Of a stretch of DNA of 34,577 nucleotides, positions 3,347 through 20,935 are shown in pieces; the first letter of the stretch is position 1; every line of letters starts with the position of its first letter. Origin of the DNA: an uncultured Clostridia bacterium (GTDB taxonomy: Bacteria; Bacillota; Clostridia; Christensenellales; Borkfalkiaceae); assembly GCA_947177975.1 (NCBI GenBank), contig CAMWWH010000009.1:1-34577 (forward strand), read 5' to 3'. The notes beneath the pieces were generated by a model that saw only the letters and a program-made list of their open reading frames with translations, did not search any database and was not told where the DNA came from. Made by a program: the position numbers and the translations under genes.

Positions 3347-3349
3347 GTT

Positions 3350-4820: not shown

Positions 4821-4839
4821 GTTTTCAGGAGAACAGTTT

Positions 4840-5433: not shown

Positions 5434-5435
5434 TT

Positions 5436-5466
5436 AAAAGAGAGGCTTGTTTAAAACCTCTCTTTT
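5436..5466. terminator. Bidirectional terminator between lexA and rluB
   Basis: Perfect arms AAAAGAGAGG (5436-5445) and CCTCTCTTTT (5457-5466) with an 11-base loop. T-runs lie on both strands, so the same hairpin can end lexA and the convergent rluB transcript. Confidence 0.85.
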
Positions 5467-5471
5467 TTGAT

Positions 5472-6170
5472 TTAAATGGATAACAAATAGGCAACTTCCT
5501 GCTTTGTAAGCTTTCTGTACGCGCCTCTGTCCAGTCCGCGCAACGTGATTTCGCCTATCTTTATGCGCTTTAAAAGCGTTACTTCCTTGCCGATTGCCTC
5601 GAACATTTTTCTGACTTCGCGGTTTTTTCCCTCGGTTATGGTAACGTGAATTTTCGTGTATTCCTTGTTGGTTTCCACTATGTGCGCCTTGCACTTTTTC
5701 GTAACGTAACCGCCGATGTCCACGCCGCTTCTTATGGGGTTAAGCCCCGCCTCGGTAATCGTGCCTTCGATTTTAACTAAATAAGTTTTGGGTACTTCGT
5801 TGGACGGGTGCGTCAAATGCTGAGCAAGCGCACCGTCTGTCGTTAAAATCAACAGCCCCTCGCTGTCATAGTCCAGTCTTCCGACGGGGTAAATTCTGCC
5901 CGTTCCCTGCGGCATTAAATCGAGTACCGTCTTTCTGCCCTTCTCGTCGCGAACCGAGCAGATGTAGCCTTTGGGCTTATTCAATATATAATATTCGTTT
6001 TTCTTGACGTTTACGGTCGTGCCGTTGACGGTTACGACGTCGTCGTCACCGACGTCTGCGCCGATTTGCGCGGTCTTGCCGTTTATCGAAACGGCGCCGC
6101 TTTCAACTAACTTGTCGCACTCTCTGCGCGAAGCTACGCCGCACGCGGCAAGGAATTTGTTTATTCTCAT
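5472..6170 (-). CDS. rluB: RsuA/RluB-family 23S/16S rRNA pseudouridine synthase
   Basis: A 232-residue enzyme that isomerises a uridine in ribosomal RNA. It has an S4 RNA-binding domain at about residues 1-48 (MRINKFLAACGVASRRECDK), then the catalytic domain with the family signature GRLDYDSEGLL, in which Asp100 is the nucleophile, and the conserved NREVRKMF near residue 181. Length is normal for the family. RluB (23S rRNA) is preferred over RsuA because the gene closes a scpA-scpB-dac operon as it does in B. subtilis, but family alone cannot decide the target. It starts 25 nt after the carboxypeptidase stop and has no clear Shine-Dalgarno, so it is probably translated as part of that operon. 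Confidence 0.93.
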   Translation of the reverse strand: MRINKFLAACGVASRRECDKLVESGAVSINGKTAQIGADVGDDDVVTVNGTTVNVKKNEYYILNKPKGYICSVRDEKGRKTVLDLMPQGTGRIYPVGRLDYDSEGLLILTTDGALAQHLTHPSNEVPKTYLVKIEGTITEAGLNPIRSGVDIGGYVTKKCKAHIVETNKEYTKIHVTITEGKNREVRKMFEAIGKEVTLLKRIKIGEITLRGLDRGAYRKLTKQEVAYLLSI

Positions 6171-6195
6171 AATTATTTCAGCTTTTATTTGTACT

Positions 6196-7194
6196 TTAAT
6201 TTATAGTATACAAATTGCGGCTGAAAATCAAGTTATTTTCGCTATAAATTTCAAGCTTTGCGGTTGCGCTCTTATCGTCCGACTCGCAAACTTCAAATTT
6301 TAAATCCTTTCCTTTTTCCACGAGTATTTTACAATCGCTATCGAGCGTACACTGCTTGCCGTTATACGTGAATACAGTGTCCAAGCTTACCGTTTCGAGA
6401 GAGTATCTTGCAAAACAGCTGTTTATTATCGACGCACTTTTCTCGTACATATCGTAGCAATTGAGAACTACGCAGATAACGTCCATTTGCTCGCGCTCGG
6501 CGGAAGATACCAGACATCTTCCCGCCTTTTTCGTGTAGCCCGTCTTTACTCCGTTGGCGCCGTCAAGCGAATTGAGCAGCTTATTTTTGTTAAGAAAGTG
6601 CCTGAAATCGCCGCTGTAATGCCTTGTCGAAACAACCTCTTTAAAGGTCTGATTGCTCATAGCACAGCGTGCAATATTGCACAAATCTCTTGCCGTAGTA
6701 TAGTGCTCGTCGTCGGGCAGTCCGTTCGGATTTTTGAAATGCGTGTTGTCGGCTCCGATCTCCTTCGCTCTTTCGTTCATCTTGTCGACAAACTTTTCAA
6801 TCGTTCCGCTGTGGTGAATTGCAAGCGCGCACGCTGCGTCGTTGCCCGAACGCAGCATAAGTCCGTAAAGCAAATCTTTTACCGAAATGCGCTCGTCCTT
6901 TTTAAGATATATGCTCGACCCCTCTACGCCCACCGCGCTGTCGGGAACTGTTATTACCTCGCTTAAATCGCAGTCCTCGGCTACGATTAAAGCGGTCATT
7001 ATTTTAGTCGTGCTCGCCATGGGAAGCTTTGCGTCGATATTCTTTGCGTGCAGAATTTCTCCGCTTTCGAGCTCCATTGCAATTTCGGCAACGCCGTCCG
7101 CAGCAGCTTTGACTGTGCCTAACCCCATGGGTAAAGATAATATAACCGCAAGGCATACGCCGACGGTAAATACTTTTAAAAATTTCTTAAACAT
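6196..7194 (-). CDS. D-alanyl-D-alanine carboxypeptidase (DacF/PBP5-like), first copy
   Basis: A 332-residue serine-type penicillin-binding protein that trims the terminal D-Ala of peptidoglycan stem peptides. A signal peptide (about residues 1-31) is followed by the S11 catalytic domain with S61-T-T-K64, S116-G-N118 and K217-T-G219, all three active-site motifs intact. The region after about residue 265 is a short C-terminal beta domain. It overlaps the ytfJ stop by 8 nt. Its position after scpA-scpB and ytfJ matches the B. subtilis dacB neighbourhood, which suggests a role in spore cortex or vegetative wall tailoring. A second paralogue lies at 11856-13031. Confidence 0.93.
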   Translation of the reverse strand: MFKKFLKVFTVGVCLAVILSLPMGLGTVKAAADGVAEIAMELESGEILHAKNIDAKLPMASTTKIMTALIVAEDCDLSEVITVPDSAVGVEGSSIYLKKDERISVKDLLYGLMLRSGNDAACALAIHHSGTIEKFVDKMNERAKEIGADNTHFKNPNGLPDDEHYTTARDLCNIARCAMSNQTFKEVVSTRHYSGDFRHFLNKNKLLNSLDGANGVKTGYTKKAGRCLVSSAEREQMDVICVVLNCYDMYEKSASIINSCFARYSLETVSLDTVFTYNGKQCTLDSDCKILVEKGKDLKFEVCESDDKSATAKLEIYSENNLIFSRNLYTIN

Positions 7195-7561
7195 TGTTCG
7201 AAAGCTTGTGAACTAATTCCCCCGTCTTTTCTATCAGAGTGTCGATAGCGCCCTCTTCCAATTTCAGAAGGCGGCACTCCTTTCCGTCGTCAACCAAAAA
7301 GCCCTTGGGTTTTACGGTGATAACCGTGCCGTTGCCGCCCGCAAGTTTAAATCCGTCAGCCTCGCGGAAGGTCTTAACGTCGCCGTACTCTCCGCCTCCG
7401 CCTAAATTCACTACCGTAACCGACGATAAAGGAATAACCTGTGTGCCGCTTGCCGTTGTTATAGGTTCGCCTATAACGGTATCGGCGTCGGCTATTTTTT
7501 CAATAGGCAGCGCCGGTTTTTCAAAGCTCTCGTTCTGAGTTGTCTTTAATTTATTTTTCAT
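7187..7561 (-). CDS. ytfJ: YtfJ/GerW-family sporulation protein
   Basis: A 124-residue soluble protein of the YtfJ (GerW) family, found in spore formers and linked in B. subtilis to germination with L-alanine. Family marks are GEPITTASGTQVIPLSSV, a glycine run (LGGGGEYGD) and GGNGTVITVKPKGFLV. The ATG overlaps the end of the DUF2953 gene by 11 nt and a TGGGGGA Shine-Dalgarno lies in that gene's last codons. Its stop overlaps the next carboxypeptidase start by 8 nt, so three genes are tightly coupled. Present in the usual clostridial block of scpA-scpB-DUF2953-ytfJ-dac. Confidence 0.9.
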   Translation of the reverse strand: MKNKLKTTQNESFEKPALPIEKIADADTVIGEPITTASGTQVIPLSSVTVVNLGGGGEYGDVKTFREADGFKLAGGNGTVITVKPKGFLVDDGKECRLLKLEEGAIDTLIEKTGELVHKLSNNV

Positions 7562-8093
7562 TTATTTTCCCCCAATAGAATACAATTAACAGCTTTAAAA
7601 GCGTAATGACGTTGATTACGCCCGCAAGCTTTAAGTAATAGTTAACGTTTGAGTGTTCGTAATTGAGCACCGAATAGTTTTTAAGTTTCGTCTTGCCGCC
7701 GTTGGCTTTTACAAACGTATAAACTGCGTTGGTTGCCGCGCCGTTTGCAAGTGCAACATACGCGTTATTCGGATTTTGCAAGCCGTAATCGCCAAGCTGT
7801 ACTATTTTCGTAAGACACAGGTTATTGAAAATTTTCAGCCAGTTTGTCGGCGTCATAAGCTTGTCGTCTTTTTTTTCGTCCTTGTCTTTATCCTTTTTGT
7901 CGGTGTCATCTTTGTCGTCGGGCTTGGGTGGCTTTTCGGTGTTAACATTCAAAACCGTAATCATTTTATAAAGCGTAACGTTGATGCTTGCGTACTTTTC
8001 CTCGGTCGACGCATAGACATACACGAGTACATGCAGTGGAAACACTGCTAATAAAAACAATATTGCGGAAATGTAAACAAGCGCTTCACTCAC
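7551..8093 (-). CDS. DUF2953-like membrane protein
   Basis: About 180 residues. An N-terminal hydrophobic segment is followed by the DUF2953-like stretch VYVYASTEEKYASINVTLYKM. Then comes a highly charged Lys/Asp linker rich in KDKDKDEKKD, a soluble region, and a C-terminal hydrophobic helix. Position between scpB and ytfJ is the usual place of DUF2953 genes in Clostridia, which supports the call; function is unknown. The frame extends to a TTG at 8129, but that TTG lies in the U-tract of the terminator at 8135-8163, so I prefer the GTG at 8093. Neither start has a good Shine-Dalgarno, and the true start is uncertain. Confidence 0.68.
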   Translation of the reverse strand: MSEALVYISAILFLLAVFPLHVLVYVYASTEEKYASINVTLYKMITVLNVNTEKPPKPDDKDDTDKKDKDKDEKKDDKLMTPTNWLKIFNNLCLTKIVQLGDYGLQNPNNAYVALANGAATNAVYTFVKANGGKTKLKNYSVLNYEHSNVNYYLKLAGVINVITLLKLLIVFYWGKINEK

Positions 8094-8134
8094 GTAAATA
8101 TTATCTGTAATAAAAATATTATTATACAAAAACG

Positions 8135-8163
8135 GCGGGCTGACGATTTTATCGTCAGCCCGC
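8135..8163 (-). terminator. Strong intrinsic terminator between scpB and the DUF2953 gene
   Basis: Perfect 13-bp GC-rich arms (8135-8147 and 8151-8163) with a 3-base loop, followed on the minus strand by CGTTTTTG. It should end most of the lysA-scpB transcript. A TATAAT at 8126-8121 directly after it could be a -10 for the next genes, though no matching -35 is visible. Confidence 0.85.
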
Positions 8164-8168
8164 TCGAT

Positions 8169-8900
8169 TTATTTGATTTTAATAACGTTTTCTTCGCCTT
8201 CGAGGAACTCGGGGAGTTCGTAACCGTCCTCTGTTGCGGCCGGTTTCTTTTGCGGCTCTTCGGGAGCGCCGTCGTTATTGTCGCTTTCCGTACTGCCGCC
8301 CTCTTCGTCCTCGCCGCTATATTCGTCTCTGTGATACAAATATTTGCCGTCTTCCTCTTCACGCAGAATGGTATCGTTGAGTTCGGCGATCTGTTTCATC
8401 AGCTCGTCGTAATCGGGCAGTTCGTCGATAGAATTGAGCCTGAACCTCTTCAAAAAGTTATCGGTCGTCATATATAGTATGGGCTTGCCGATTGTATCTC
8501 TTCTGCCGCAAGGCTCGATCATTCCAAGCTCCAACAGCGTATGAACGGCGTAATCACAATTAACCTGCCTTATTTCCTCCAGGTCGCCCTTGGTTACGGG
8601 TTGCTTGTAGGCGATAATTGCGGCGCATTCCAAAATGGTCTTGGTAAATTCCTTTTCCTTTATGGGTGTGAGTACGTCGGAAATCTGCTGTTTATACGCG
8701 GGGTTGGAAGCAAGCTGAATTTTGCCGTTGAAAGTCAGCAACTGTATGCCTCTTTCGGGACCGAATTTTTCTTTCAGCTCCGCTACGGCGGCGTTCACTT
8801 CCTTCAACGAGCACCCGAGCTTTTCGATTATGTACTTTACCGGTACTGCGTCGCCCGAGGCGAACACTATTCCCTCAATTATATTCGTCAAATTGTTCAT
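8169..8900 (-). CDS. scpB: Segregation and condensation protein B (ScpB)
   Basis: A 243-residue winged-helix protein that, with ScpA, forms the non-SMC part of the bacterial condensin complex. Typical ScpB blocks are IIEGIVFASGDAVPV at the start, ECAAIIAYKQPVTKGDLEEIRQVN in the middle, and GRRDTIGKPILYMTTDNFLKRF near residues 130-155. After about residue 185 there is an acidic, low-complexity tail rich in Glu, Asp, Ser and Pro, making the protein about 50 residues longer than usual. The ATG lies inside the end of scpA (26-nt overlap), the usual coupled arrangement. Confidence 0.95.
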   Translation of the reverse strand: MNNLTNIIEGIVFASGDAVPVKYIIEKLGCSLKEVNAAVAELKEKFGPERGIQLLTFNGKIQLASNPAYKQQISDVLTPIKEKEFTKTILECAAIIAYKQPVTKGDLEEIRQVNCDYAVHTLLELGMIEPCGRRDTIGKPILYMTTDNFLKRFRLNSIDELPDYDELMKQIAELNDTILREEEDGKYLYHRDEYSGEDEEGGSTESDNNDGAPEEPQKKPAATEDGYELPEFLEGEENVIKIK

Positions 8901-9693
8901 TGTTTATGTCCTTTAAATCCGAATCGGGATTGCGTTTTATCTTTATGTTACCGAAAGCGTCTTGCTGTTCAACGAGCACGTACTGGAATTTTAGCATTTC
9001 CAAAAGTGCTTGAAAGGTTGTTATGACCTCGTTTCGTGAAAAGGTCGCAAAAAGCTCGTCGAACTGGAACTCTTCCTTAACCAAAAGCAACTCGCGGATA
9101 AATCCGACTCTTTCCTGTACGGTGTATTCGTCTTTCGGAATTTCCTTGATATTTTCCTTTTCGCGTTGAAGACTCTCGTTGCGGAGCATCAGGTTTGCAA
9201 AAGCCTGCAACATTGCGTCGACGCTGAAATCTCTGTAAACTATTTTTACCTTGCTGATTTCCTTGTCGGGCTCTTTGAAAAAGTAGCCGATAGTTTCCAG
9301 ATTTTTGAGCTTCGGCGTACGCTCTTTTATAAGCTCGAATTCGCGCTGTTTAAGCTGTTCGATGAGCTCCTGCTGCTCGTCCTCCGCGCCACCTATCTCT
9401 TCGCCGTCGATTTCAACGGGCGGAACTAACGACTTGGATTTAATATAAATAATCTGTGCCGCCATGGCAAGGTACTCGCTTTCCTTGTCTACGTCGCGGC
9501 TGGGCTGCGTTTTCATATACTCGATATAGTCGAGGAACTGCTCGGTTACCTTGGATACGAAAATATCGTCGATACTTATCTTATTTACGTTGATTAAATG
9601 CAACAGTAAATCGAGCGGACCTTCGAAATCGTCTAAGACGGTATCGTAGTCCACTACCGATTCAAAATTTTCGTACTTAGGGTCAATGCTCAT
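8875..9693 (-). CDS. scpA: Segregation and condensation protein A (ScpA)
   Basis: A 272-residue kleisin that bridges the SMC heads and binds ScpB during chromosome compaction and segregation. The kleisin signature DDFEGPLDLLLHLI lies near residues 21-34, followed by KISIDDI and YLAMAAQIIYIKSKSLVPP. The C-terminal winged helix carries VTTFQALLEMLKFQ-like features. I chose the ATG at 9693 because a GGGGGTGG Shine-Dalgarno precedes it and it overlaps the protease stop as ATGA. A GTG at 9714 would lie in that Shine-Dalgarno region. It is followed by scpB with a 26-nt overlap. Confidence 0.95.
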   Translation of the reverse strand: MSIDPKYENFESVVDYDTVLDDFEGPLDLLLHLINVNKISIDDIFVSKVTEQFLDYIEYMKTQPSRDVDKESEYLAMAAQIIYIKSKSLVPPVEIDGEEIGGAEDEQQELIEQLKQREFELIKERTPKLKNLETIGYFFKEPDKEISKVKIVYRDFSVDAMLQAFANLMLRNESLQREKENIKEIPKDEYTVQERVGFIRELLLVKEEFQFDELFATFSRNEVITTFQALLEMLKFQYVLVEQQDAFGNIKIKRNPDSDLKDINNEQFDEYN

Positions 9694-10415
9694 ATTTTTA
9701 AAATCCACCCCCACGCCGCTTTGATGGGGAATCCTATAATATTTTCCGCAAACCAGCCGAGATAGCTGAGTATATCCAAATGGTCTACTATGTTTGCAAT
9801 TTGCGCGTTCGGAACACGGTCGACGACAAAACCGCAGATAAAACTTTCAATTAAAAATATTATCAGTATCACCTGTCCGTAGTTGCGCAGAAATCTCTGT
9901 ACGGGGTTAACCTGCCGCGTCACAGCTTGTACGATTCTGAACCCGTCAAGCGGGTACAGTGGCAAAAGGTTGAACACGAACGAGTACACGCTGTACAAGA
10001 AAATCAGATAAAGAATTTGGCAAACAAAAATTATTGCGTAATATGCTACTATTCCCTGTGAAATATAGTGAATAAGAAAACGTTCGCAAAGAACAAATAA
10101 CAGATACGCAAAAAACGCAATGATATAGTTTACGATTACTCCCGCGACAGCCGTCGTAAACATTCCCTTTTTGTAATTTCTGAAATTGTAAGGGTCAATC
10201 GGCACGGGTTTAGCCCACCCGAAGCCTACCAACGCGCACAAAACAAAGCCCGCAGGATCTATATGTTTTATGGGATTAAGCGTCATTCTGCCGCGAATTT
10301 TAGCCGTCGGGTCGCCATTTTTATACGCAACAAACGCGTGTGCATACTCGTGCGGAGCAAATACGAAAACCACCGCAATCAAGCTTGCAACATAAAAAAT
10401 AACTGTTTCTATCAT
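9690..10415 (-). CDS. Site-2 protease (M50 family) membrane metalloprotease
   Basis: A 241-residue polytopic protease. The zinc motif HEYAH (residues 22-26) sits in the first membrane segment, and the second motif NLLPLYPLDG in a later one provides the third zinc ligand Asp. Four to six hydrophobic segments are visible. This compact, domain-free form is the Rv0359/YwhC-like M50 group commonly found between lysA and scpA in Clostridia. It is not obviously SpoIVFB, which has a CBS domain. Its ATG abuts the lysA stop (TAAATG), so expression is coupled to lysA. Substrate unknown. Confidence 0.9.
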   Translation of the reverse strand: MIETVIFYVASLIAVVFVFAPHEYAHAFVAYKNGDPTAKIRGRMTLNPIKHIDPAGFVLCALVGFGWAKPVPIDPYNFRNYKKGMFTTAVAGVIVNYIIAFFAYLLFVLCERFLIHYISQGIVAYYAIIFVCQILYLIFLYSVYSFVFNLLPLYPLDGFRIVQAVTRQVNPVQRFLRNYGQVILIIFLIESFICGFVVDRVPNAQIANIVDHLDILSYLGWFAENIIGFPIKAAWGWILKI

Positions 10416-11741
10416 TTACTTTAAACTGTCGGGAATTACGTCGTTTCTGACGAGGTCCTCAAACGTCTGCTTCTTTATAATCGTTTCCGCTTTACCGTCC
10501 TTGACCAAAATTGCCTGAGGAATAAAATTGCGGTTGTAGTTGCTTGCCATCGAATAATGATAAGCGCCCGTAGACAGCACGGCGAGAATATCTCCGCTTT
10601 CAACTTCGGGCAAAGGTAAATCCACGCCGATTAAATCGCCGCTCTCGCAACACTTACCAGCTATACTCACCTTCTGAACGTTTGCCGCGTTCACGTCCGC
10701 CGCCTTGACCACCGTATATTTCGATTGATAAAGCGCATATCTCGGATTTTCAAACATACCGCCGTCTATCGCAACGTACTTGCGGATTCCGGGGATATCC
10801 TTTATCGAGCCGACGGTGTATAAAGTTATACCCGCTTCACCGACTATAGAGCGCCCCGGCTCGATTAAAAGATAGGGCAACCTGAAATTCAACTCTTTAG
10901 ATTTTTCTTTGACTGTTTTTATAAGCGTGAGAAGATACTCCGCGTAATCGCTTTCGGTAAATTTGGGGTCTTCGTCCGTATAATAAATACCGAAGCCGCC
11001 GCCCATATTTAAAATTTCGGCTTCGAAACCAGCCTCTTTCTTTACCGCAACCATGAATTCAATCATATTCTGCGCGGCAAGCGAGAACGACTGCTTTTCA
11101 AAAATCTGTGACCCGATATGGCAGTGATAACCCTTCAACTCGAGATTTTTAAGCGATAAGACGTGTTTAGTGTATTCAAGCGCGGTGTTGTCGCGGAAAG
11201 AAAAACCGAATTTGGAGTCGGTTCTCGCCGTCTGCACGAATGCGTGAGTGTGCGCCTCGACACCGGGGTTTACCCTTATCAACACCTTTTGCTTTACCTT
11301 ATACTCCGCGGCGATTTTGTCCAAAATATCCGCTTCGCGGTAGGAATCGATTACAATGCCGCCGACTCCCGCTTTGACCGCCTGAACAAGCTCTTCGTAA
11401 GTTTTATTGTTGCCGTGCACGTAAATATCGGCAGCGTTAAAACCCGCTTTGAGCGCAGTATAAAGCTCGCCGCCCGAAACCGCGTCGCAACCGATACCTT
11501 CCTGCTTGGCTATGCGGTACATCGCAAGGCAGGAAAAAGCTTTAGACGCATACAGCACTTTGCCGTGTCCGTCGTAATCCTTATTTATCGTATTTTTAAA
11601 GACACGCATCATGGCGCGGATATAATCTTCGTCATAAACGTATAGCGGAGTTCCGAACTCCTTTGCTAATTCAAGCGTGTCGCAACCGCCTATTTCCAAA
11701 TGCCCTGCGGCGTTTACCTTCAAAGTATTTCTGCTGTTCAT
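10416..11741 (-). CDS. lysA: Diaminopimelate decarboxylase
   Basis: A 441-residue PLP enzyme that converts meso-diaminopimelate to L-lysine, the last step of lysine synthesis. Visible are the PLP lysine block VLYASKAF, HGNNKT, the HCHIGSQI-type motif (YHCHIGSQI), the glycine-rich phosphate loop NMGGGFGI, and CCESGD with YHYSMAS near the C-terminus. The frame extends upstream to a TTG at 11786, but that lies at or above the -10 of the promoter at 11777-11805. The ATG at 11741, with AAAGG 10 nt ahead, is therefore the start. First gene of the lysA-M50-scpA-scpB operon. Confidence 0.96.
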   Translation of the reverse strand: MNSRNTLKVNAAGHLEIGGCDTLELAKEFGTPLYVYDEDYIRAMMRVFKNTINKDYDGHGKVLYASKAFSCLAMYRIAKQEGIGCDAVSGGELYTALKAGFNAADIYVHGNNKTYEELVQAVKAGVGGIVIDSYREADILDKIAAEYKVKQKVLIRVNPGVEAHTHAFVQTARTDSKFGFSFRDNTALEYTKHVLSLKNLELKGYHCHIGSQIFEKQSFSLAAQNMIEFMVAVKKEAGFEAEILNMGGGFGIYYTDEDPKFTESDYAEYLLTLIKTVKEKSKELNFRLPYLLIEPGRSIVGEAGITLYTVGSIKDIPGIRKYVAIDGGMFENPRYALYQSKYTVVKAADVNAANVQKVSIAGKCCESGDLIGVDLPLPEVESGDILAVLSTGAYHYSMASNYNRNFIPQAILVKDGKAETIIKKQTFEDLVRNDVIPDSLK

Positions 11742-13060: not shown

Positions 13061-13603
13061 TTATACTATAACCACGATTACTCTGAAAACCACGTTTACA
13101 AGAAGTAACAGAATAATCGAATTTATTAGCGCGAGAACCGCGGGAAGAATAAAAGAATAAGGCGAGCATATTTGCCTGCACTGTTCACGCAGAATTATGA
13201 AAAAAGCTACCGAACAAATAAACGACGGAACAAACACCAACACCGCAACGATTATTCCTTCGGTGCCGAAAAGCGAGCACAATATTACTACGTAGAGCGC
13301 AGTGAACAGAGTTCGTAAAAACAGTAACGGATAGGCAAGAATTTTCAGTTTGGTAAAATATGCAAGCAAAAATACGACGTAAAGATAAACCAGCTCGCTT
13401 AAAATATGCGAAACGAACAGTCTGCCGCTTGTAAAATTAAAGACGTAAAAAATGTAAATATTGGCAAAATCAAATACATAATTACTAATACTGTTCATTT
13501 TGTATAGTACTATGCCACATATAATAGCACCTAAAATGACAATTGCATCAGCAATAAGGAACCTGATATCCCACTTAAATTTGTTACATTTGAAAATCCT
13601 CAT
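13061..13603 (-). CDS. SpoIIM-like (DUF95) integral membrane protein
   Basis: A 180-residue protein that is mostly membrane: five or six hydrophobic segments after a short basic start. The stretch FGTEGIIVAVLVFVPSFICS resembles the conserved G-x-x-G-x-x-x-x-P region of SpoIIM, a member of the peptidoglycan-degrading DMP complex that drives forespore engulfment. It lies between dacF and upstream genes, near lysA, and spoIIM is also a neighbour of dacF in B. subtilis. The sequence match is weak, so this is a tentative call. The ATG at 13603 is inside a 12-bp hairpin and has no Shine-Dalgarno; a TTG two codons earlier is in the hairpin loop. Confidence 0.5.
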   Translation of the reverse strand: MRIFKCNKFKWDIRFLIADAIVILGAIICGIVLYKMNSISNYVFDFANIYIFYVFNFTSGRLFVSHILSELVYLYVVFLLAYFTKLKILAYPLLFLRTLFTALYVVILCSLFGTEGIIVAVLVFVPSFICSVAFFIILREQCRQICSPYSFILPAVLALINSIILLLLVNVVFRVIVVIV

Positions 13604-13622
13604 ATACAATTATATGAGGATT
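13595..13622 (-). promoter_or_regulatory. 12-bp perfect hairpin over the start codon of the SpoIIM-like gene
   Basis: Arms AATCCTCATATA (13595-13606) and TATATGAGGATT (13611-13622) pair perfectly across a 4-base loop. On the minus strand it begins at the stop codon of the beta-helix gene and its 3' arm contains the ATG at 13603. A short T-run (TTTTC) follows. It could be an intercistronic terminator or attenuator, or a structure that hides the start. Confidence 0.6.
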
Positions 13623-15702
13623 ATCTGTCTAATATGAACTCTAACGTATTTATGATTGATTTATACCCTTCGGAATTCTGTATCTCTTCAATCGTGGCGG
13701 AGATTGCACCCTTATCCTCTGCCGATGCAAAACTGCCGTCGGCGGTAACCGTTTTGCCGAAAGCGCAGAAAGAATTTTCAAGATAGTAGTTGCCTTCGAA
13801 GTTATGATATTCGATATTATTGATATAATATGAATTGCTTTCGTAAATATTGGCGCCGCATGCACCCGCAATATTTCCGAAATCGGATATATTCGCCGCA
13901 CACTCCCCTATAAAATAACTGTTTGTTACCGAGCCGCCTAAATATACAACAGAGTCGTTGTTATCAAACCCCGCCTCACGTACATAGCCTGCAATGCCTC
14001 CAGCCTGCAAAATTGTTTTATCTGTTGTGGCAATGCTGAATTTGCTTTCGCTTATGCAATAATTTACCGAGCCGCAATAAACAAAATTTCCGTTACGCGT
14101 AATTTCGCTTATGCCCAAAATTCCGCCTGCATACACATTTTGCGCTGTAACGTTAATTTCGCCGCTTGAATAGCAACTTGCTATTTGGGTGAAAGAATGT
14201 GCGGCTATACCGCCTACGTACGCCTCTCCGCTGCCGATTGCAGTTATATTTGCATCATTAACACATTTAATAACTGTGCCGCTGTTTAGATAAGTTATGC
14301 CTGCCGCGGTAACGGTAGGTAAGTTACCTTCCTGCTCTTCTTGTTGTACAGCATTTGAAATTGCCGAGATATTACCCGTATTTTTACAATTTTCAACAGT
14401 GTAATTGTTAGTTATAGCTATTCCACAACAAATCGGATTCCAGCCTGTATCGGTAGAAGTCTGTGAAAGATTTGCCTCGTTTACATTTCCGTAAAGCAAG
14501 CCACTATTTTCATAGCATACTCCGGCAATATCAAATGTATCGGCAATTACCTCTCCTGTGACGGTACAATCAAGTAAATATGCACTGTTTATACCCGCAA
14601 CGCCGCCGAACGAAGCATTTGCGCTCGCTTCGCCGACAAGCTCAAACTGCGAATAGTTCACCGTGCAATTCTTGATTTGTCCTACGAAAACGTTATATTT
14701 GACGCTATTAAGCCCCACTATACCGCCGAAAACAAGCTCTGAGGAACTATCGGCCGACGATGCAAGCGCGCTCAGATTTCCGCTTACGTTTACGGTAACG
14801 CCGTCAATCGCGCCGTAGTTTATTAACGAAACGAAAGCCGAACTCTCCTTCGCCGTTACGTCCGCGCTGACGTTAACCGTCACGTTTTCAATTGCGGCTG
14901 TTTCGTTAACCAAGGTAAATACCGTGTCTCCCGAGCTTTCGATTGTCATATCGGATAATTTTCCGTTCAACTCGCCAAGCGTAGCACCTTTGCCTAAAAT
15001 CAGCTTGTTGCCTCCGCCGACGATTTTGCAATTGACTTTTTCTACGGAATAATTTGCGGGAATAACAATGTCGCGTTTAAGCTTATATTCCTTTTGGGAG
15101 CTGAAATCAATTTGACTGAGTTTGGTGACGTCCCCTTCTTTCGGTAACAGAGATATCGTAGTTATCGGTACGCACACGGCTACCGCAGCGGCTAAAAACG
15201 AGCACAGACATATGGTAGCAATATTCTTCTTTTCGCGGTAACTTAAAGGTCGCCTTGCAATAATTATGTCATTGCCGTCAAATCCGACGTCAAGCGAATA
15301 CTTAATATAATAAATTGATTTTAGCCGCTCTCTGACTGCGGCAGACTGCTTTGTCTTGGGGAATACTTGCTTTAAATGCTTGGTTTTGTCTAAAATCAAA
15401 AGCATTTCAAGCGGTGAAATTATTTCGTTTAGATATAATCTCAAACACTTACCCGCTTTTGCAGAGAATTTCTTTGAAACCTCTACGGGCTCAAGCACCG
15501 CCTTAAAATTTGTGCATTTTATTAACTTTTCTTCATATACGGAAAGAATTTTGCGGGATTTATAGAGATACAGAAGCGACAGCACGGGAAATCTGCCCAG
15601 ACGGTACGTACCGCACTGAGCATTATCAATCAAATCTTTAAACGCGTTTACGTCGTCTTTTTTAATCGCCTGAAACAGGCTTTCTTCATTTGATTGCGCC
15701 AT
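13621..15702 (-). CDS. Membrane protein with ankyrin-like head and GLUG-type beta-helix
   Basis: A 693-residue protein in three parts. Residues 1-60 form an ankyrin-like helical unit (ESLFQAIKKDDVNAFKDLID, then GRFPVLSLLYLYKSRKIL), with more helical soluble sequence to about 160. A hydrophobic segment lies at about 161-186. The remaining 500 residues are rich in Asn, Ser, Gly and Val and carry repeated GLUG-like units: GGIVGLN, GGVAGIN, AGITYLN, GGIAAHS, GGILGIS, GGIAGYV, GNIAGAC. These form parallel beta-helices in surface proteins of gut Firmicutes. Topology is thus cytoplasmic head and extracytoplasmic helix. The Shine-Dalgarno AGAGGT precedes the ATG, 15 nt after the coiled-coil gene. Function unknown; a sensor or adhesin is possible. 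Confidence 0.75.
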   Translation of the reverse strand: MAQSNEESLFQAIKKDDVNAFKDLIDNAQCGTYRLGRFPVLSLLYLYKSRKILSVYEEKLIKCTNFKAVLEPVEVSKKFSAKAGKCLRLYLNEIISPLEMLLILDKTKHLKQVFPKTKQSAAVRERLKSIYYIKYSLDVGFDGNDIIIARRPLSYREKKNIATICLCSFLAAAVAVCVPITTISLLPKEGDVTKLSQIDFSSQKEYKLKRDIVIPANYSVEKVNCKIVGGGNKLILGKGATLGELNGKLSDMTIESSGDTVFTLVNETAAIENVTVNVSADVTAKESSAFVSLINYGAIDGVTVNVSGNLSALASSADSSSELVFGGIVGLNSVKYNVFVGQIKNCTVNYSQFELVGEASANASFGGVAGINSAYLLDCTVTGEVIADTFDIAGVCYENSGLLYGNVNEANLSQTSTDTGWNPICCGIAITNNYTVENCKNTGNISAISNAVQQEEQEGNLPTVTAAGITYLNSGTVIKCVNDANITAIGSGEAYVGGIAAHSFTQIASCYSSGEINVTAQNVYAGGILGISEITRNGNFVYCGSVNYCISESKFSIATTDKTILQAGGIAGYVREAGFDNNDSVVYLGGSVTNSYFIGECAANISDFGNIAGACGANIYESNSYYINNIEYHNFEGNYYLENSFCAFGKTVTADGSFASAEDKGAISATIEEIQNSEGYKSIINTLEFILDR

Positions 15703-15717
15703 AACCTCTTAAACGAA

Positions 15718-16434
15718 CTATTTCTTTTTGGTTTTTACCTTCCTGTCGGCCGCCCATTTATCGAAAGCGTCGTACAAATATTCTTCGTTGACAGAACCGC
15801 CCTCAACCAGCTTTCTCAAAAGAGCAGACGTATTTGAAAACTCGCTGATGAGTATTGCAATATCTTTTCCCTGCTCCGCAACGGCTGCCGACAACTGCTC
15901 GTTCTCTTTGCGGATAGCTTCTATTTTATCCGCATTCTGTTTTAATACGGACGCAATGTCCTTATTGATAAAGTCGCTGATTTTTTCAACGTTCGTGTTA
16001 TATCCGTCAAGCGATTTCTGCAATTCCTTGAGATTGTACGACGAACGCTTTTCCGCTATCAGCGCGTCAATACGCGCAAGGTAGCTCTGTGCGCTCCTCT
16101 CTATTTCACTGAGCGAATCGATTCTTTTAACAACCTCCGAAAAGCGCGCGGTCATATTATTTACCGCCTGCGCATACTTTTCGCCCGAATCCGCGTATTC
16201 CTCGATTTTTCTGCCCAACTCCTGACCGTTCTTAGCCTGCGCGTTTATCGTAGCGTGAACTTTTTCGAGCTGGCTTGCAGCGTTGCCCGAAAAGCTTTTG
16301 GTAAGTGCGTCGAGGTCGTCTCTAATCTCTTCGTACGTCCTGCTGACCGAATGTAAGCTCTCCTGCAAAGGCGCAATAAGATTGCGGTAAGCAATAAAAC
16401 TGTCTATAAGTTCTTTAATAGAATTGTCGCTCAT
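15718..16434 (-). CDS. Coiled-coil protein of unknown function
   Basis: A 238-residue soluble protein, no signal peptide or membrane segment. Nearly the whole chain is predicted helical by heptad reading (for example LQESLHSVSRTYEEIRDDL and ISDFINKDIASVLKQNADKI), ending in a very basic tail (VKTKKK). No catalytic motif is visible. Start and stop of the upstream helicase overlap by one base (TAATG), and a GAGG lies 10 nt before the ATG, so it is translated in step with the helicase and is likely a physical or functional partner. I recognise no named family. Confidence 0.75.
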   Translation of the reverse strand: MSDNSIKELIDSFIAYRNLIAPLQESLHSVSRTYEEIRDDLDALTKSFSGNAASQLEKVHATINAQAKNGQELGRKIEEYADSGEKYAQAVNNMTARFSEVVKRIDSLSEIERSAQSYLARIDALIAEKRSSYNLKELQKSLDGYNTNVEKISDFINKDIASVLKQNADKIEAIRKENEQLSAAVAEQGKDIAILISEFSNTSALLRKLVEGGSVNEEYLYDAFDKWAADRKVKTKKK

Positions 16435-18818
16435 TATTTTTTCCTCTTCATTTTAGCGCTCGCCGCTTTTATATTCGCCGCGATTTCACTGCTGTCTTTA
16501 TTGAGTGTGTCAAGTATAATCTTTTTGGCAACGTCGTTGTCCTCGACCAAAGTAAAAAACCGCACGATTTCGGGATTGAGAATTCCGCCGCCCTGTAAGC
16601 AGGCGTCCATAAGCGGAAACAGTTCCTCGTCACCCGACCTTGTGAACATTTCACGCGCCTCGCCGTCCATACCCTGCCGCCAGTATTCTATACCCGCGTC
16701 CCTTATTTTGCCGTAACGCAGATATTTTTCGTGTATGGATATATAAATAAGTTGCTTTTTGCGCAGTTCGTCGGAAGATAGCCTGTCCGCGGTGTTGCGA
16801 GCGTTTTCGTACTGTTCGAGAGCGCAGAATTTTTCTATGCGCTCTGTAAATTCGTCGTCGTCAATCTCTATGCTGCCCGCAATATCTTTTAAATAAGCCA
16901 GCGCGCTGTCCTTTTTTCTTACGTCGAAACATTCGTTAAACAGCTTATCGAAGGTTTCGGGATAGTCGGACTCTGCTACGAACAGATACTGACGCGCACG
17001 GGATATACCCACGTAGAACAGATTGAAGTAATACCTGAAAACAGAGTTTTCGTCGGCGGTTTTTCTGTTAAGCGACATATTGTTAAGATACCGCCACTTG
17101 TCCGCATTGTCGCTTAAAACGTCTGCAAGTATAACCGTGTTACGCTCCAACCCTTTCGCTTCGGCTACCGTAAGAATTTCGGTTTTACCCAGAATCTTTC
17201 TGAGCTGTTCTTTCTTCTTATGCGAGCCGACGATTACGGTTACGTTTTCAAACCGCTTGTCACCGAGTGAAAAAACGAAGCTCTTGTCTTTTATCAGAAC
17301 CGCGGCTGACGGCAGCGGCGAAGCAACGCTCTCGCTCTTTAAAACAAAGCTGTGAGTACCGAATTTCTGTATATTCATTTCACCGAGCTTTGCGGCGATA
17401 TGTTCGATTTTTTCCGTGCTTCGGTAGTTGTGCCGAAGCTCGTCTACGCCGGTGACGTCGCCGTACATTAACCGCTTTAAGTATCCGAAATTGAAATACG
17501 ACGGGTTAATCATCTGCAAAGCGTCGCCCACACAGAACAGCTTTCGGCAGAGCTTTTTCATCAGGCACAGATTTACCTGCGTAAAGTCCTGCACCTCGTC
17601 GATTACGCCTACCGAATACCTGGGCGACGTAACGACGGCTAATAGTTCACGGCTGATAAGGTTATTGTCGGTATATCCCCGCTTTTTTAGAAAATCGGCG
17701 TAGTCAGTTGCTACGGAATAAATTACGTCGCACTCGCGCCGGGTAAAGCTGTCGCTTCTTTGTTTTTGGTAGTCTTCCCGATTCATCATATCGCGCGGCG
17801 CGTCAAGCTCATACGTGCCGAAAATCATTCCGTAAATTTCTTTATAAATTATCTCGTGCGCAATGTGTTTTATTGATTCCAACGCACCGGAAAGGCGATA
17901 ATTCTTGCCCGAGCCCAAATACTCGTTTAAAAATACGCTCTCATTTGAAATGGGTTTTGCCTCGAAAGTTTCAGCGTAGATATCTTCTATTAAACGGTAG
18001 TCAACTTTCTCTTTCAGGAAGCGCGAAATACGCTTTAACGATGAAAATATTTCACCGTCCTCATCTACCGAAAATAAAATACCGAGTTTGTTTTCCACCG
18101 CTTTTTTATGGTCGGAGTCTAAAAATTCGACGTTTCCGCTCTCGTATGCGGAAATTAAGCTGTCGATATTATTGGTAAACAGCTCTACGCGGTTGCGAGT
18201 TTCGGTCAGAAGTCCGCGTGAAAAGGTTGTATACAGTACCGCTCCGCGATAGTTGCGGCAGGCGCAATAAACTATTTTTTCAACGCAAACATTGGTCTTA
18301 CCGCTGCCCGCTATGCCCTGCACGAGCATATTTGCGTCCTCTGTTTCGACGATTTTTCGCTGTGTTTCGTTAAGGTATGGGAAATTGACTATGCCGTCCG
18401 AACCCGACACTAAATAAAGTCTTGTCAGATCTTCGTCAGAAACCTTCTCGTCCGTTTCGCGCAATTCCAAAGAAATTCCGTCATGCGCCGAAATATATTC
18501 GCTGAGCCGCCTGTCAGTTCCGCCCTCGGCAGAATTTGCGCTTAAAAACTTGTAAAATACGATATCTCCGTCCGATAACCTTTCGTCACTGCCCATAAGG
18601 CGGAAGTAAAGTGTATAAAGGCTGTCCTCGGTCTGTGCGGTATAGCAGCCGACGGGCAACTCGGAATTCTCGCTGATTATACTTTCCCCGACACGCGAAA
18701 TAAAAGCGTCTATCGCAATTATCCTGCGAGTCAGCGAAACAAAGCCCTCCGTCTTATATACCCTTCGGCTTGAAGATAACGCTATCTTTTTCGTGTCTGC
18801 CGTAATCTTTTTTATCAT
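16434..18818 (-). CDS. UvrD-like superfamily 1A helicase with TPR-like tail
   Basis: A 794-residue ATP-dependent nucleic-acid helicase. The motor motifs appear in order: Q153, Walker A GIAGSGKT (168-175), Walker B DEVQD (407-411), motif III GDALQ (431-435), motif IV NYRS (464-467), motif V AKGLE (554-558) and motif VI YVGISRAR (602-609). Residues 1-150 are a family-specific N-terminal region without a known motif. Residues from about 655 to 760 are helical repeats resembling TPRs (EQYENARNTADRL, GIEYWRQGMDGEAREMF). It is not a standard UvrD, PcrA or Rep, nor a clear HelD, since the HelD N-terminal coiled arm is absent. The start overlaps the release-factor-like stop as ATGA, so the two are coupled. 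Substrate unknown. Confidence 0.88.
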   Translation of the reverse strand: MIKKITADTKKIALSSSRRVYKTEGFVSLTRRIIAIDAFISRVGESIISENSELPVGCYTAQTEDSLYTLYFRLMGSDERLSDGDIVFYKFLSANSAEGGTDRRLSEYISAHDGISLELRETDEKVSDEDLTRLYLVSGSDGIVNFPYLNETQRKIVETEDANMLVQGIAGSGKTNVCVEKIVYCACRNYRGAVLYTTFSRGLLTETRNRVELFTNNIDSLISAYESGNVEFLDSDHKKAVENKLGILFSVDEDGEIFSSLKRISRFLKEKVDYRLIEDIYAETFEAKPISNESVFLNEYLGSGKNYRLSGALESIKHIAHEIIYKEIYGMIFGTYELDAPRDMMNREDYQKQRSDSFTRRECDVIYSVATDYADFLKKRGYTDNNLISRELLAVVTSPRYSVGVIDEVQDFTQVNLCLMKKLCRKLFCVGDALQMINPSYFNFGYLKRLMYGDVTGVDELRHNYRSTEKIEHIAAKLGEMNIQKFGTHSFVLKSESVASPLPSAAVLIKDKSFVFSLGDKRFENVTVIVGSHKKKEQLRKILGKTEILTVAEAKGLERNTVILADVLSDNADKWRYLNNMSLNRKTADENSVFRYYFNLFYVGISRARQYLFVAESDYPETFDKLFNECFDVRKKDSALAYLKDIAGSIEIDDDEFTERIEKFCALEQYENARNTADRLSSDELRKKQLIYISIHEKYLRYGKIRDAGIEYWRQGMDGEAREMFTRSGDEELFPLMDACLQGGGILNPEIVRFFTLVEDNDVAKKIILDTLNKDSSEIAANIKAASAKMKRKK

Positions 18819-19822
18819 AAAGCCATAAGTCCGTTTAAATATTGAGTAAACCGCTCTTCAGAAAGTGGAAACGGTATTTTAGTAAACCCTTTAAGCCGCG
18901 TATCGGTCATAGTATTGCTTACTGCATCGAATGATACGGCGGTATTTTTTTGAGAATACTGCGAAGCTATGTCTGCTTCGATGCGGTTCTTTTCAGATGA
19001 AATACTCTTTTCTCTCAGCCGTTTTTCAATTGTTTCCAATGCACGTTTCTTGTTTTTAAGTTGCGAACGTTCGTCCTGACAGACAACGCTCAGACCCGTA
19101 GGCAAGTGGGTAATTCTGACGGCGGTCTCCACCTTGTTTATATTCTGACCGCCCGCACCGTGAGAATGAAAAACGTCAATCTTCAAATCGCTTTCAGATA
19201 GCACTTCGATTATTGTAGCCTGCGTTACGGCAAAGCACAGCTCCTCGCAAGGCGACTGCGCGGTATGCACCTTGTGTGCGCCCGTAATCGGAATAAGGCG
19301 CGAGGTTATGTCCGCGCCCTCGGCAATGAACGAAATTTCCTGCACAAAGCCGCTTTTTGCCGTCACAACCTTTTCATCCTTTATTTTCGCGCCGTGCAAT
19401 AAAAGGTCGGACTTAATAAGAGAAAACAGCGCCGCGCCGAACCTGGACGAACCCTCTTTCAATTTAAACCGACAATATGTACTCTCTTCCGTGTGCTTGC
19501 AGCCGAGCGCATCTGCAAGAGCTGTCGATGTCTGTGCGGCGGTCTTTTTTAAGGACGAGATTTCTTTGTATATCTCCGCACGCTCTTCGTCGGAACTTGC
19601 TTCTGAAAGAAGCGCGTAAACCGCCTTTTCGTCTTCAAGCGCAGAAATAAGCTCGGAAAGCTTGTCCTTTAAAAATTTTAATTGATTGTATTTCGATAAA
19701 ACCGACAGATAATACGCCTTGTCCGCCTGTACTTCGGGATATTCCAAAAGCTCCTTTGTTTCCTCAAAGTCGTTAAGCACTTTTCTTGTAGCGTCGATAA
19801 TATTGTCGTAAATGCCGTACAT
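18815..19822 (-). CDS. Divergent class-I peptide chain release factor-like protein
   Basis: A 335-residue protein with the fold order of RF1/RF2: an N-terminal helical domain, a decoding domain, and the peptidyl-tRNA hydrolysis loop G224-G225-Q226 (HGAGGQNIN). The latter is followed by well-kept ETAVRITHLPTG and CQDERSQLKNK. The decoding domain is aberrant. After SRL and GAHKVH (181-186), where RF1 has PxT and RF2 has SPF, it reads TAQSPCEE, and the downstream HTS is lost. The C-terminal RTYNFP and TDHR are also degraded (TDTR remains). It therefore is not the housekeeping prfA or prfB. It may release peptides without normal stop recognition or act in rescue; this is inference. First gene of a six-gene unit. 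Confidence 0.85.
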   Translation of the reverse strand: MYGIYDNIIDATRKVLNDFEETKELLEYPEVQADKAYYLSVLSKYNQLKFLKDKLSELISALEDEKAVYALLSEASSDEERAEIYKEISSLKKTAAQTSTALADALGCKHTEESTYCRFKLKEGSSRFGAALFSLIKSDLLLHGAKIKDEKVVTAKSGFVQEISFIAEGADITSRLIPITGAHKVHTAQSPCEELCFAVTQATIIEVLSESDLKIDVFHSHGAGGQNINKVETAVRITHLPTGLSVVCQDERSQLKNKKRALETIEKRLREKSISSEKNRIEADIASQYSQKNTAVSFDAVSNTMTDTRLKGFTKIPFPLSEERFTQYLNGLMAL

Positions 19823-19828
19823 ATACTG

Positions 19829-19857
19829 ATTATAACATAAATATATCAAAAAGTCAT
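19829..19857 (-). promoter_or_regulatory. Promoter of the release-factor-like/helicase operon
   Basis: On the minus strand: -35 ATGACT (19857-19852), 17-bp spacer ending in TGT, -10 TATAAT (19834-19829). The perfect extended -10 makes it convincing. The -10 ends 6 nt before the ATG at 19822 and there is no Shine-Dalgarno, so transcription would start at the first codon. This also rules out the upstream TTG at 19849 as start. Confidence 0.68.
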
Positions 19858-19874
19858 TTAGAAATAATAAACAA

Positions 19875-19910
19875 AGCGGTTAAATCAAGCAACTGCTTGA
19901 TTTAACCGCT
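19875..19910 (-). terminator. Terminator of the spoIVB operon
   Basis: Arms at 19875-19891 and 19894-19910 pair perfectly over 17 bp (start AGCGGTTAAATC), directly after the spoIVB stop. On the minus strand a T-rich tail (TTTGTTTATT) follows. It separates the asp23-spoIVB operon from the release-factor-like operon. Confidence 0.85.
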
Positions 19911-19915: not shown

Positions 19916-20935
19916 TTAATAAGAACTCGTCATATTGTCAATTGAAATACCGTAGCCGCGCGTCGGGTCGTTTACGAACACGTGGGTAACTGCGCCTATG
20001 AGCTTGCCGTTTTGAACTATGGGGCTTCCGCTCATTCCCTGTACTATGCCGCCTGCCTTTTCGAGTATGCGTTTGTCGTTGATTTTGATTACGTAGTTGC
20101 GATTATTCTTATTTTCCGCGTCTACTTTGACAATAGAAATTTCATACTTTTCGCAGGTATTGCCGTTTAACGTAGAGTAAATATAAGCTTTCCCGATAGT
20201 AGCTTCGCTTACGCTTCCCATCTTAACGCGCGTCAGGTTTGAAACGTTAAAATCTTTTGCAAGATCTCCGAAAATTCCGCACTGGGTATTCTCTTTAATC
20301 ACGCCGAACATCTGCGAGTTATCGAAAAATCCTCTCAATTCACCGGGATTTCCTCTCAATCCCTTCTTCACGTCGTATATAGAACAATCGTATAAACATC
20401 CGCCGTTGATTGCAATTGCGTTTCCGTTTTCGTCGTTTACGGGGTGCCCGAGCGAGCCGAACTTATTATTCGTTTTGTCGATATAAGTAACCGTTCCAAT
20501 TCCGTTAATACTGTCTTTAACTAAAAGTCCCAGCTTCTTTTTTCCGCTTGTCTTGTCTATTGCGGGTTGCAGATTTATCTCAACCGATTCACCCGCGCGG
20601 TTAATAAGCAAATTATACTTTGCAAAATCCTCCGAAAGCGCCTCGGTAAGCATGTTTGCCGACGTAATCTCGATATCGTTTAATTTCTTGATTATATCGC
20701 CGCTCTTGACGCCGCCTTCCCTTGCAGGACAGACCATACCGCTTTCGGTATTTATTTCGCACATTCCGATAACTTCCACGTTCTGAGTATTCAGAACAAA
20801 TCCTGCGGGAAACCCGCCTATATAGAATTCGTCGGTCGGCACCGCGTACACGCGCATAACCGACAGACTACAAATTACTGCGGCGCAAAAAATAACGCCC
20901 AACAATATTTTAGTAAACTTTTTAAAAGAAAGCAT
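19916..20935 (-). CDS. spoIVB: SpoIVB serine peptidase
   Basis: A 339-residue S55-family protease. In sporulation it is made in the forespore, secreted to the space between the membranes, and cleaves SpoIVFA to release pro-sigma-K processing. A signal anchor (about residues 8-31) is followed by a PDZ domain at about 50-130 (GGVKSGDIIKKLND) and the peptidase domain with H164 (GSLGHPV) and nucleophile S304 (GMSGSPI). It is shorter than the B. subtilis protein (about 426) chiefly before the PDZ domain. It lies 58 nt after recN, the conserved order in spore formers. The next gene is not spo0A. Confidence 0.93.
   Translation of the reverse strand: MLSFKKFTKILLGVIFCAAVICSLSVMRVYAVPTDEFYIGGFPAGFVLNTQNVEVIGMCEINTESGMVCPAREGGVKSGDIIKKLNDIEITSANMLTEALSEDFAKYNLLINRAGESVEINLQPAIDKTSGKKKLGLLVKDSINGIGTVTYIDKTNNKFGSLGHPVNDENGNAIAINGGCLYDCSIYDVKKGLRGNPGELRGFFDNSQMFGVIKENTQCGIFGDLAKDFNVSNLTRVKMGSVSEATIGKAYIYSTLNGNTCEKYEISIVKVDAENKNNRNYVIKINDKRILEKAGGIVQGMSGSPIVQNGKLIGAVTHVFVNDPTRGYGISIDNMTSSY

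What the first reader, a model, noticed from the sequence alone, without database searches (positions are those of the whole stretch)
13061..19857. Coupled release-factor-like / UvrD-like helicase / coiled-coil / ankyrin-beta-helix cassette in the spo0A position
One promoter (19829-19857) leads into a release-factor-like gene, a UvrD-like helicase joined by ATGA, a coiled-coil protein joined by TAATG, and 15 nt later a one-pass protein with an ankyrin-like cytoplasmic head and a GLUG beta-helix outside. A SpoIIM-like gene follows. Such tight coupling usually means the products work together, yet I know no system combining a translation-release fold, a helicase, a coiled-coil linker and a transmembrane beta-helix. 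The helicase has a TPR-like tail, so protein contacts are likely. A ribosome or nucleic-acid surveillance unit, an envelope-linked stress or defence unit, or merely a lineage-specific cluster are all open. Coupling is seen; joint function is inference.
Basis: partly seen in the sequence, partly recalled or inferred. Interest (0 to 1): 0.78.

Follow-up and report, generated by a model that had tools for sequence, protein, structure and literature searches.

The report
Mobile release-factor, helicase, membrane protein cassette
A four-gene unit found in many Clostridia joins an altered release factor, which keeps its catalytic part but has lost the known stop-codon motifs, to a helicase, a coiled-coil protein and a membrane-anchored protein; the genes travel and are kept together, which suggests an undescribed way of acting on ribosomes.

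Summary
The RF-like, UvrD-like helicase, coiled-coil (CC) and ankyrin-like/TM/beta-helix (ANK) genes form a self-contained cassette inserted next to spoIVB. 120 other genomes of the same family show no full-length helicase relative. Of 80 distinct loci not cut by contig ends, 69 have all four genes in this order and 11 have helicase-CC-ANK. At least three RF-type genes occur in 40 of 40 helicase-positive genomes and in 0 of 40 negative ones, also where the RF-like gene lies elsewhere. The family keeps GGQ in 88 of 88 copies and the RF1/RF2 stop-codon motifs in none. In 43 of 84 copies an extended -10 box ends exactly 6 nt before an ATG, predicting leaderless mRNA. The 'SpoIIM-like' gene is not part of it, and no spo0A was seen at this site. 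Best reading: a codon-independent release factor with its own helicase and membrane anchor, for ribosome rescue or surveillance (0.36). Defence is a near rival (0.32), because one same-genus genome holds defence-type genes at this very site. Joint action is well supported; mechanism is inference. Nine literature searches gave no description.

The parts
13621..19910 (-). inserted cassette, from about the hairpin after the spoIVB stop to the ANK stop codon (left border uncertain by a few bases)
   Evidence: seven same-genus relatives have spoIVB, a short gap, a palindrome and the small membrane gene, without the cassette
19875..19910 (-). terminator-like hairpin between spoIVB and the cassette promoter
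   Evidence: read from sequence; not seen in the seven relatives' spoIVB ends printed
19829..19857 (-). promoter: ATGACT, 17-nt spacer, TATAAT preceded by TGT; 6 nt before the ATG, predicting a leaderless mRNA
   Evidence: the same -10 spacing in 43 of 84 distinct RF-like genes
18815..19822 (-). RF-like gene, 335 aa: GGQ kept (HGAGGQNINK), no RF1 or RF2 stop-codon motif
16434..18818 (-). UvrD-like SF1 helicase, 794 aa, with its own N-terminal domain (1-148) and a helical C-terminal tail
15718..16434 (-). coiled-coil protein, 238 aa, of near-constant length with a conserved C-terminal motif
13621..15702 (-). ANK: helical (perhaps ankyrin-like) head, one TM helix, GLUG-type beta-helix predicted outside
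13597..13620 (.). palindrome at the right border, probably the old spoIVB terminator (not part of the cassette)
   Evidence: exact in four and altered in three of seven relatives without the cassette

Best explanation
The four genes are one horizontally moved system. Shown by sequence: an operon with its own promoter; an RF-type protein that keeps the peptidyl-tRNA hydrolase loop (GGQ) but none of the known stop-codon motifs; a helicase with intact ATPase motifs; a well conserved coiled coil; a membrane protein whose charges put the head inside. Inferred: the RF-like protein enters the A site of ribosomes that RF1, RF2, tmRNA or RqcH do not serve and releases the peptide without reading a codon; the helicase strips or remodels the nucleic acid of that complex; the coiled coil bridges; ANK holds the complex at the membrane, where its outer beta-helix can contact something. 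A leaderless start of the first gene would let it be made when Shine-Dalgarno initiation fails (recalled property of leaderless mRNAs, not tested).
For: Order RF-helicase-CC-ANK in 81 of 107 distinct loci, 69 of 80 not cut by contig ends. At least three RF-type genes in 40 of 40 helicase-positive and at most two in 40 of 40 negative genomes (40 of 63 positives, picked mostly by completeness, and 40 of the more than 300 negatives). Four of the 40 positives (G162, G183, G332, G352) have the RF-like gene away from the helicase operon. None of 120 other genomes of the window's family has a third RF-type gene or a full-length helicase relative. G153, G214 and G160 lack both though other members of their genera have both. 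GGQ in 88 of 88; RF1 motif PxTE[ST][QE]GR and RF2 motif SPF[DN] in 0 of 88, against 28 and 8 of 40 control proteins, which include a few RF-like ones. Mean identity in distant pairs: GGQ domain 49%, helicase core 50%, RF-like residues 1-207 20% (253 of 300 pairs of 25 loci). Extended -10 ending exactly 6 nt before an ATG in 43 of 84 RF-like genes, 2 of 103 helicase genes, 0 of 104 CC and 5 of 496 flanking ORFs; no Shine-Dalgarno site in those 43. Charge before the TM exceeds that after it in 33 of 40 ANK.
Against: No experiment; ribosome binding rests on fold and GGQ alone. In the same genus, G064 has at the same site, right after spoIVB, an HTH gene, a large SF1 helicase matching the Mokosh protein MkoA (E 7.3e-87) and, further on, a protein matching PDC-M37B and DolB models: the site takes defence-type genes. 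SmpB is present in 38 of 41 positive and 37 of 39 negative genomes, NFACT/RqcH in 39 of 41 and 36 of 39, so no known rescue pathway is replaced. The helicase resembles DNA helicases at least as much as RNA ones. No complex could be modelled. The outer beta-helix has no obvious role in rescue. In 41 of 84 RF-like genes the exact leaderless spacing was not found; L099, L213 and L238 have a clear Shine-Dalgarno site. No third RF-type gene in 3 of 9 genomes of the PadR clade, 79-81% complete.
Confidence: 0.36

Rival explanations
1. An anti-phage or anti-mobile-element defence unit: the helicase senses foreign nucleic acid and the RF-like protein stops translation by releasing nascent peptides at any codon; ANK adds a membrane step.
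For: Patchy presence and lateral transfer. In G064 of the same genus the same site after spoIVB holds genes matching Mokosh MkoA, PDC-M37B and DolB models. Fast change of the RF-like N-terminal part. Weak similarity of the helicase to GajB models (best 6.4e-19). AAA_21 (AbiEii-like) in 3 of 71 upstream neighbours.
Against: The most frequent Pfam families among 71 upstream and 65 downstream neighbours are transporters and metabolic genes, with no transposase or integrase (only 25 of 111 and 25 of 103 families are shown). No GajA model hit the four proteins. The helicase follows genera on the tree (13 label changes, 9 at least, shuffled mean 35.5). The RF-like gene is kept in trans in some genomes, unusual for a defence effector (recalled).
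Confidence: 0.32
2. A counter-toxin unit like PrfH-RtcB: the RF-like protein clears ribosomes cut or blocked by a rival's ribotoxin, and the outer beta-helix of ANK meets the toxin or its carrier.
For: An alternative release factor in a sporadic, laterally spread operon, as PrfH-RtcB (PMC6514570 section 8; PMC9223846 abstract). A leaderless start would suit cells with damaged 30S subunits (recalled).
Against: No RNA ligase or nucleotidyltransferase match in the four proteins. The window's RF-like protein keeps a PCRF match, a region that PrfH lacks. No toxin known.
Confidence: 0.18
3. The RF-like protein is not a translation factor: a GGQ-bearing relic serves as a subunit of a DNA repair or envelope complex with the helicase.
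For: The helicase core is closest to UvrD and PcrA; the N-terminal two thirds of the RF-like protein are at 20% identity in distant pairs.
Against: GGQ unchanged in 88 of 88 and 49% identity of that domain where the rest is near chance.
Confidence: 0.08

Closest known systems
PrfH-RtcB2 operon (alternative release factor with RNA ligase)
   Same: GGQ release factor of unusual codon use in a sporadic, laterally spread operon (PMC6514570 section 8; PMC9223846 abstract)
   Different: partners are a helicase, a coiled coil and a membrane protein, no ligase; the window protein keeps a PCRF match; 71.7 bits against a PrfH cut-off of 166.65
RF1 / RF2
   Same: PCRF plus RF-1 domains and GGQ
   Different: stop-codon motifs in 0 of 88; separate clade (FastTree support 0.83) with mean pairwise distance 3.5 against 0.95 for RF1; far below curated cut-offs
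ArfB / YaeJ
   Same: codon-independent GGQ hydrolase is the proposed activity
   Different: ArfB is a lone RF-PH domain with a helical tail (PMC6514570 section 8); 39.7 bits against a cut-off of 100
UvrD/PcrA/Rep and HelD helicases; eukaryotic Upf1 as a helicase that works with release factors (recalled)
   Same: SF1 core with invariant motifs
   Different: own 148-aa N-terminal domain and helical tail; 11-14% identity to these chains by Foldseek; far below the cut-offs of the ten NCBIfam models listed
Gabija GajB
   Same: UvrD-like helicase in a laterally moved operon; weak HMM similarity
   Different: no GajA match among the four proteins

Membership tests
Peptide chain release factor 1 or 2 | GGQ peptidyl-tRNA hydrolase loop | tested here: met
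   88 of 88 distinct RF-like proteins
Peptide chain release factor 1 or 2 | stop-codon motif, PxTE[ST][QE]GR (RF1) or SPF[DN] (RF2) | tested here: not met
   0 of 88; SPF alone occurs in 2 of 88, in other places of the protein; the own genome's RF1 and RF2 have the motifs
Peptide chain release factor 1 or 2 | curated score cut-off | tested here: not met
   123.8 of 423.25 and 103.4 of 370 bits for the window protein
PrfH | curated score; partner RtcB | tested here: not met
   71.7 of 166.65 bits; no ligase match in the cassette
ArfB | curated score; lone RF-PH domain | tested here: not met
   39.7 of 100 bits; 335 aa with a PCRF match
UvrD-like SF1 helicases (superfamily level) | Pfam UvrD domains and Walker motifs | tested here: met
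   PF00580 in 35 of 35, PF13361 in 33 of 35; AGSGKT and DExQD columns invariant
Gabija | GajB next to GajA | tested here: not met
   no GajA model among the padloc matches of the four proteins
GLUG-motif beta-helix proteins | PF07581 motif and beta-helix | tested here: inconclusive
   motif in 11 of 40 homologues, not in the window copy; beta-helix in the predicted model
Ankyrin repeat proteins | ankyrin repeats | tested here: inconclusive
   no Pfam ankyrin match in 40; weak Foldseek hits, prob 0.4-0.7
Leaderless mRNA | transcript starts at the start codon | not testable with these tools
   predicted from promoter spacing; no transcript data

The most novel reading that the evidence does not exclude
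A fifth version of the bacterial GGQ release factor, besides RF1, RF2, ArfB and PrfH, that works without stop codons as part of a membrane-anchored machine with its own SF1 helicase. It would be a bacterial counterpart in kind of release-factor and helicase surveillance (eRF1/Upf1), carried as a laterally moving, often leaderless operon so that it can be made when ordinary initiation fails.
Probability: 0.28. Interest if true: 0.93.

Novelty: categorically new. Interest (0 to 1): 0.82.

Why it matters
A 2019 survey names four versions of the bacterial GGQ release factor (PMC6514570, section 8). This family, with 88 distinct copies collected here, keeps the catalytic loop, lacks the stop-codon motifs, and is tied by position and by co-retention to a helicase, a coiled coil and a transmembrane beta-helix. 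If confirmed, it would be a new way for bacteria to act on translating ribosomes; I know of no other system that joins a release factor to a helicase and a membrane anchor. It would also be a case where a leaderless start seems to be kept by selection. Four genes make it directly testable, and the rescue and defence readings predict different phenotypes.

Tried and rejected
Misbinned contig: rejected. The helicase's closest relative lies in another family (83%), but RecN of the same contig is 72% identical to G007 of the same genus and 37-41% to the genomes of other families tested. ArgR, NADK, SpoIVB, the small membrane gene and DacF are 66-93% identical to G007 in kept order (these were not compared with other families).

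Fifth gene (13061-13609): rejected as part of the unit. Phage origin: no match in the phage collection and one short helicase match in viral contigs. Plasmids: distant helicases only, 24-28% identity in the 20 of 133 rows shown. Wider spread: no full-length relative among 391 class and 398 phylum genomes apart from the own one (E<=1e-40, two candidates scored per genome). The six partial hits have no RF-like, CC or ANK relative on the stretches read, two of which are short.

Replacement of trans-translation or RqcH: not supported. Defence: first set low because neighbours look metabolic (one ORF per side, 71 of 86 upstream and 65 of 72 downstream picks). I therefore raised the defence reading from 0.25 to 0.32, lowered rescue from 0.42 to 0.36, counter-toxin from 0.20 to 0.18 and the novel case from 0.30 to 0.28. 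Upf1-like descent: only one Foldseek hit among many SF1 helicases.

Limits: L105 and L231 have unread bases upstream of the helicase, so absence of RF in cis there is uncertain; G332 has an RF-like gene on another contig. Loci overlap; duplicates were removed by helicase sequence. Eight of the 107 distinct loci have no flanking ORF.
Full report
WHAT IS THERE. The window is a whole contig (G000:C9) of a 1.47-Mb genome rated 80% complete. On the minus strand lie spoIVB (19916-20935), the four genes of the finding, a small membrane gene (13061-13609) and a D-Ala-D-Ala carboxypeptidase, here called dacF. The RF-like protein matches RF-1 and, just over the cut-off, PCRF; the helicase matches UvrD domains; CC and ANK pass no cut-off in the rows shown.

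THE CASSETTE IS AN INSERTION. A search of 121 genomes of the window's family with the helicase found 22 with any match at E<=0.001, the own one included; outside the full-length own match these are partial (E 2.3e-7 at best, 30-40% identity over 67-194 residues). In the same 121 genomes, only the own one has three RF-type genes; the others have at most two, and two have none. In the order, 71 of 396 genomes match at E<=1e-6; leaving out seven with weak hits only (G126, G303, G380, G405, G412, G420, G467) gives 64, the own one included. RecN of the same contig is 72% identical to G007 of the same genus and 37-41% to genomes of other families, so the contig is native. Seven of eight same-genus relatives have spoIVB and the small membrane gene next to each other, followed by dacF. 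In these seven, a palindrome follows the spoIVB stop within some tens of bases; it is exact in four and altered in three, and in the window it lies directly after the ANK stop. The insertion thus covers the four genes, their promoter and a hairpin.

THE SITE IN G064. The eighth relative, G064, has neither the small gene nor dacF in the stretch read. After spoIVB come an HTH protein (175 aa; CI-repressor HTH model just under its cut-off) and a 1539-aa protein with AAA_11 and AAA_12 domains. The latter matches the Mokosh model MkoA (E 7.3e-87), and a 612-aa protein further on matches PDC-M37B (E 9.3e-33) and DolB (E 2.8e-19). So the gap after spoIVB in this genus also takes defence-type genes.

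IT IS CONSERVED AS A UNIT. I fetched 59 loci around helicase relatives and 80 from named genomes; the sets overlap. Of these 139 loci, 110 show RF-helicase-CC-ANK. After removing duplicates, 81 of 107 do; of the 80 with room on both sides, 69 have all four and 11 have helicase-CC-ANK. By handle the four-gene order occurs in nine family labels (f1, f3, f6, f14, f16, f19, f24, f30, f32); the f18 locus is cut by its contig end. Of 87 distinct loci with both genes, the RF-helicase gap is the 4-nt overlap in 28, within 30 nt in 40 more and larger in 19; helicase to CC is within 30 nt in 93 of 104 (starts are mechanical). Flanking proteins fall into 45 context groups, 34 of them single loci, some without any flank. 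The named records are nearly all MAGs titled Clostridia, Clostridiales or Eubacteriales, four as Christensenella sp.. The helicase tree follows genera with some transfers, and the window's row sits in a supported set with six f6 rows and one f3 row.

CO-RETENTION IN TRANS. In the f16/g57 clade a PadR gene (PF03551, E 1.3e-13 and 1.5e-14 in the two copies tested) stands where the RF-like gene is expected. Yet 6 of 9 such genomes have a third RF-type gene elsewhere, one of them only as a fragment, and G332 and G352, whose helicase operons lack it, have one too. The seven stretches that I fetched all encode GGQ. With 40 helicase-positive genomes (of 63, picked mostly by completeness) and 40 negatives of the order, all positives have three or four RF-type genes and all negatives one or two. 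The negatives were picked by handle number, not matched by kinship, but three share a genus with positives (G153, G160, G214). This is the strongest evidence that the products act together.

THE RF-LIKE FAMILY. GGQ is present in 88 of 88 distinct proteins, the RF1 and RF2 stop-codon motifs in none, while the own genome's RF1 and RF2 have them. A FastTree of 77 sequences puts 41 RF-like proteins (35 sampled from loci, 6 in trans) in one clade (support 0.83) apart from 28 RF1 and 8 RF2; mean pairwise distance is 3.5 against 0.95 for RF1. In distant pairs the GGQ domain has 49% identity, the helicase core 50%, CC 40%, the ANK head 31%, the beta-helix 25% and RF-like residues 1-207 20%. Catalysis is kept; recognition changes fast. 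Scores lie far below the curated cut-offs of RF1, RF2, PrfH and ArfB.

THE OTHER PARTS. The helicase model (mean pLDDT 84.6) has a beta-rich N-terminal domain, an SF1 core and a helical tail; nearest solved folds are UvrD, PcrA, HelD and others including Ighmbp2 and Upf1. CC has invariant D, W, A and R near its C-terminus. ANK is predicted as head, TM helix and beta-helix; the charge pattern in 33 of 40 puts the head inside.

LEADERLESS START. Over the first 40 codons of 84 distinct RF-like genes with at least 60 nt upstream, an extended -10 box ends exactly 6 nt before an ATG in 43 and 5-7 nt before in 46; no other spacing exceeds 3. At 5-7 nt the controls give 4 of 103 helicase genes, 0 of 104 CC and 9 of 496 flanking ORFs of 200 aa or more. 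Of the 43, 33 have a -35 box and none a Shine-Dalgarno site by simple patterns. Read by eye, the same spacing occurs in 2 of 6 helicase-first genes outside the PadR clade (L226, L234) and in 3 of 7 RF-like genes in trans (L304, L305, L308 with TTG); L309 is ambiguous, and L143 looks leadered. The PadR genes of that clade do not show it. Related loci are not independent, but the handles cover at least three families (f6, f3, f24).

WHAT IT PROBABLY DOES. A GGQ protein without stop-codon motif, with a helicase, a linker and a membrane anchor, is best read as a ribosome rescue or surveillance machine at the membrane. It is an addition, not a replacement: SmpB and NFACT/RqcH are about as common with as without it. 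Defence comes close behind: the neighbours elsewhere look metabolic, but the window's own site holds defence-type genes in G064. A counter-toxin role has PrfH-RtcB as precedent.

NOVELTY. The 2019 survey of release factors describes RF1, RF2, ArfB and PrfH as the bacterial GGQ versions (section 8 read), and its main text does not hold the word helicase (passage search). Nine literature searches gave no description of this combination in their listings; beyond listings I saw only passages and section 8 of PMC6514570 and the abstract and outline of PMC9223846. The library lacks most subscription journals and preprints. I rate the combination categorically new; if it proves to be plain ribosome rescue or plain defence, it would be a new variant of a known kind.

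Noticed in passing
L177 (G064), 797-11209: Same-genus genome with other genes at the same site after spoIVB: an HTH gene, a 1539-aa SF1 helicase matching Mokosh MkoA, and a protein matching PDC-M37B/DolB models; the gap after spoIVB may be a hotspot.
   Followed up: partly
13597-13620: Palindrome TCCTCATATAATTGTATATGAGGA between spoIVB and the small membrane gene, exact in four and altered in three of seven same-genus relatives; probably the spoIVB terminator.
   Followed up: partly
13061-13609: Small multi-pass membrane protein without a Pfam family, next to spoIVB in 7 of 8 same-genus relatives read; perhaps a sporulation gene.
   Followed up: no
L133, L136, L137, L139, L140 and kin, upstream of the helicase: A PadR regulator replaces the RF-like gene in one clade (f16/g57), while a shorter RF-like protein (250-297 aa in the five read) survives elsewhere in the genome.
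   Followed up: partly
L312-L317: Helicases of 855-1156 aa outside the order match the profile partly (E 1e-43 to 1e-55) without the partner genes: a wider UvrD-like family.
   Followed up: partly
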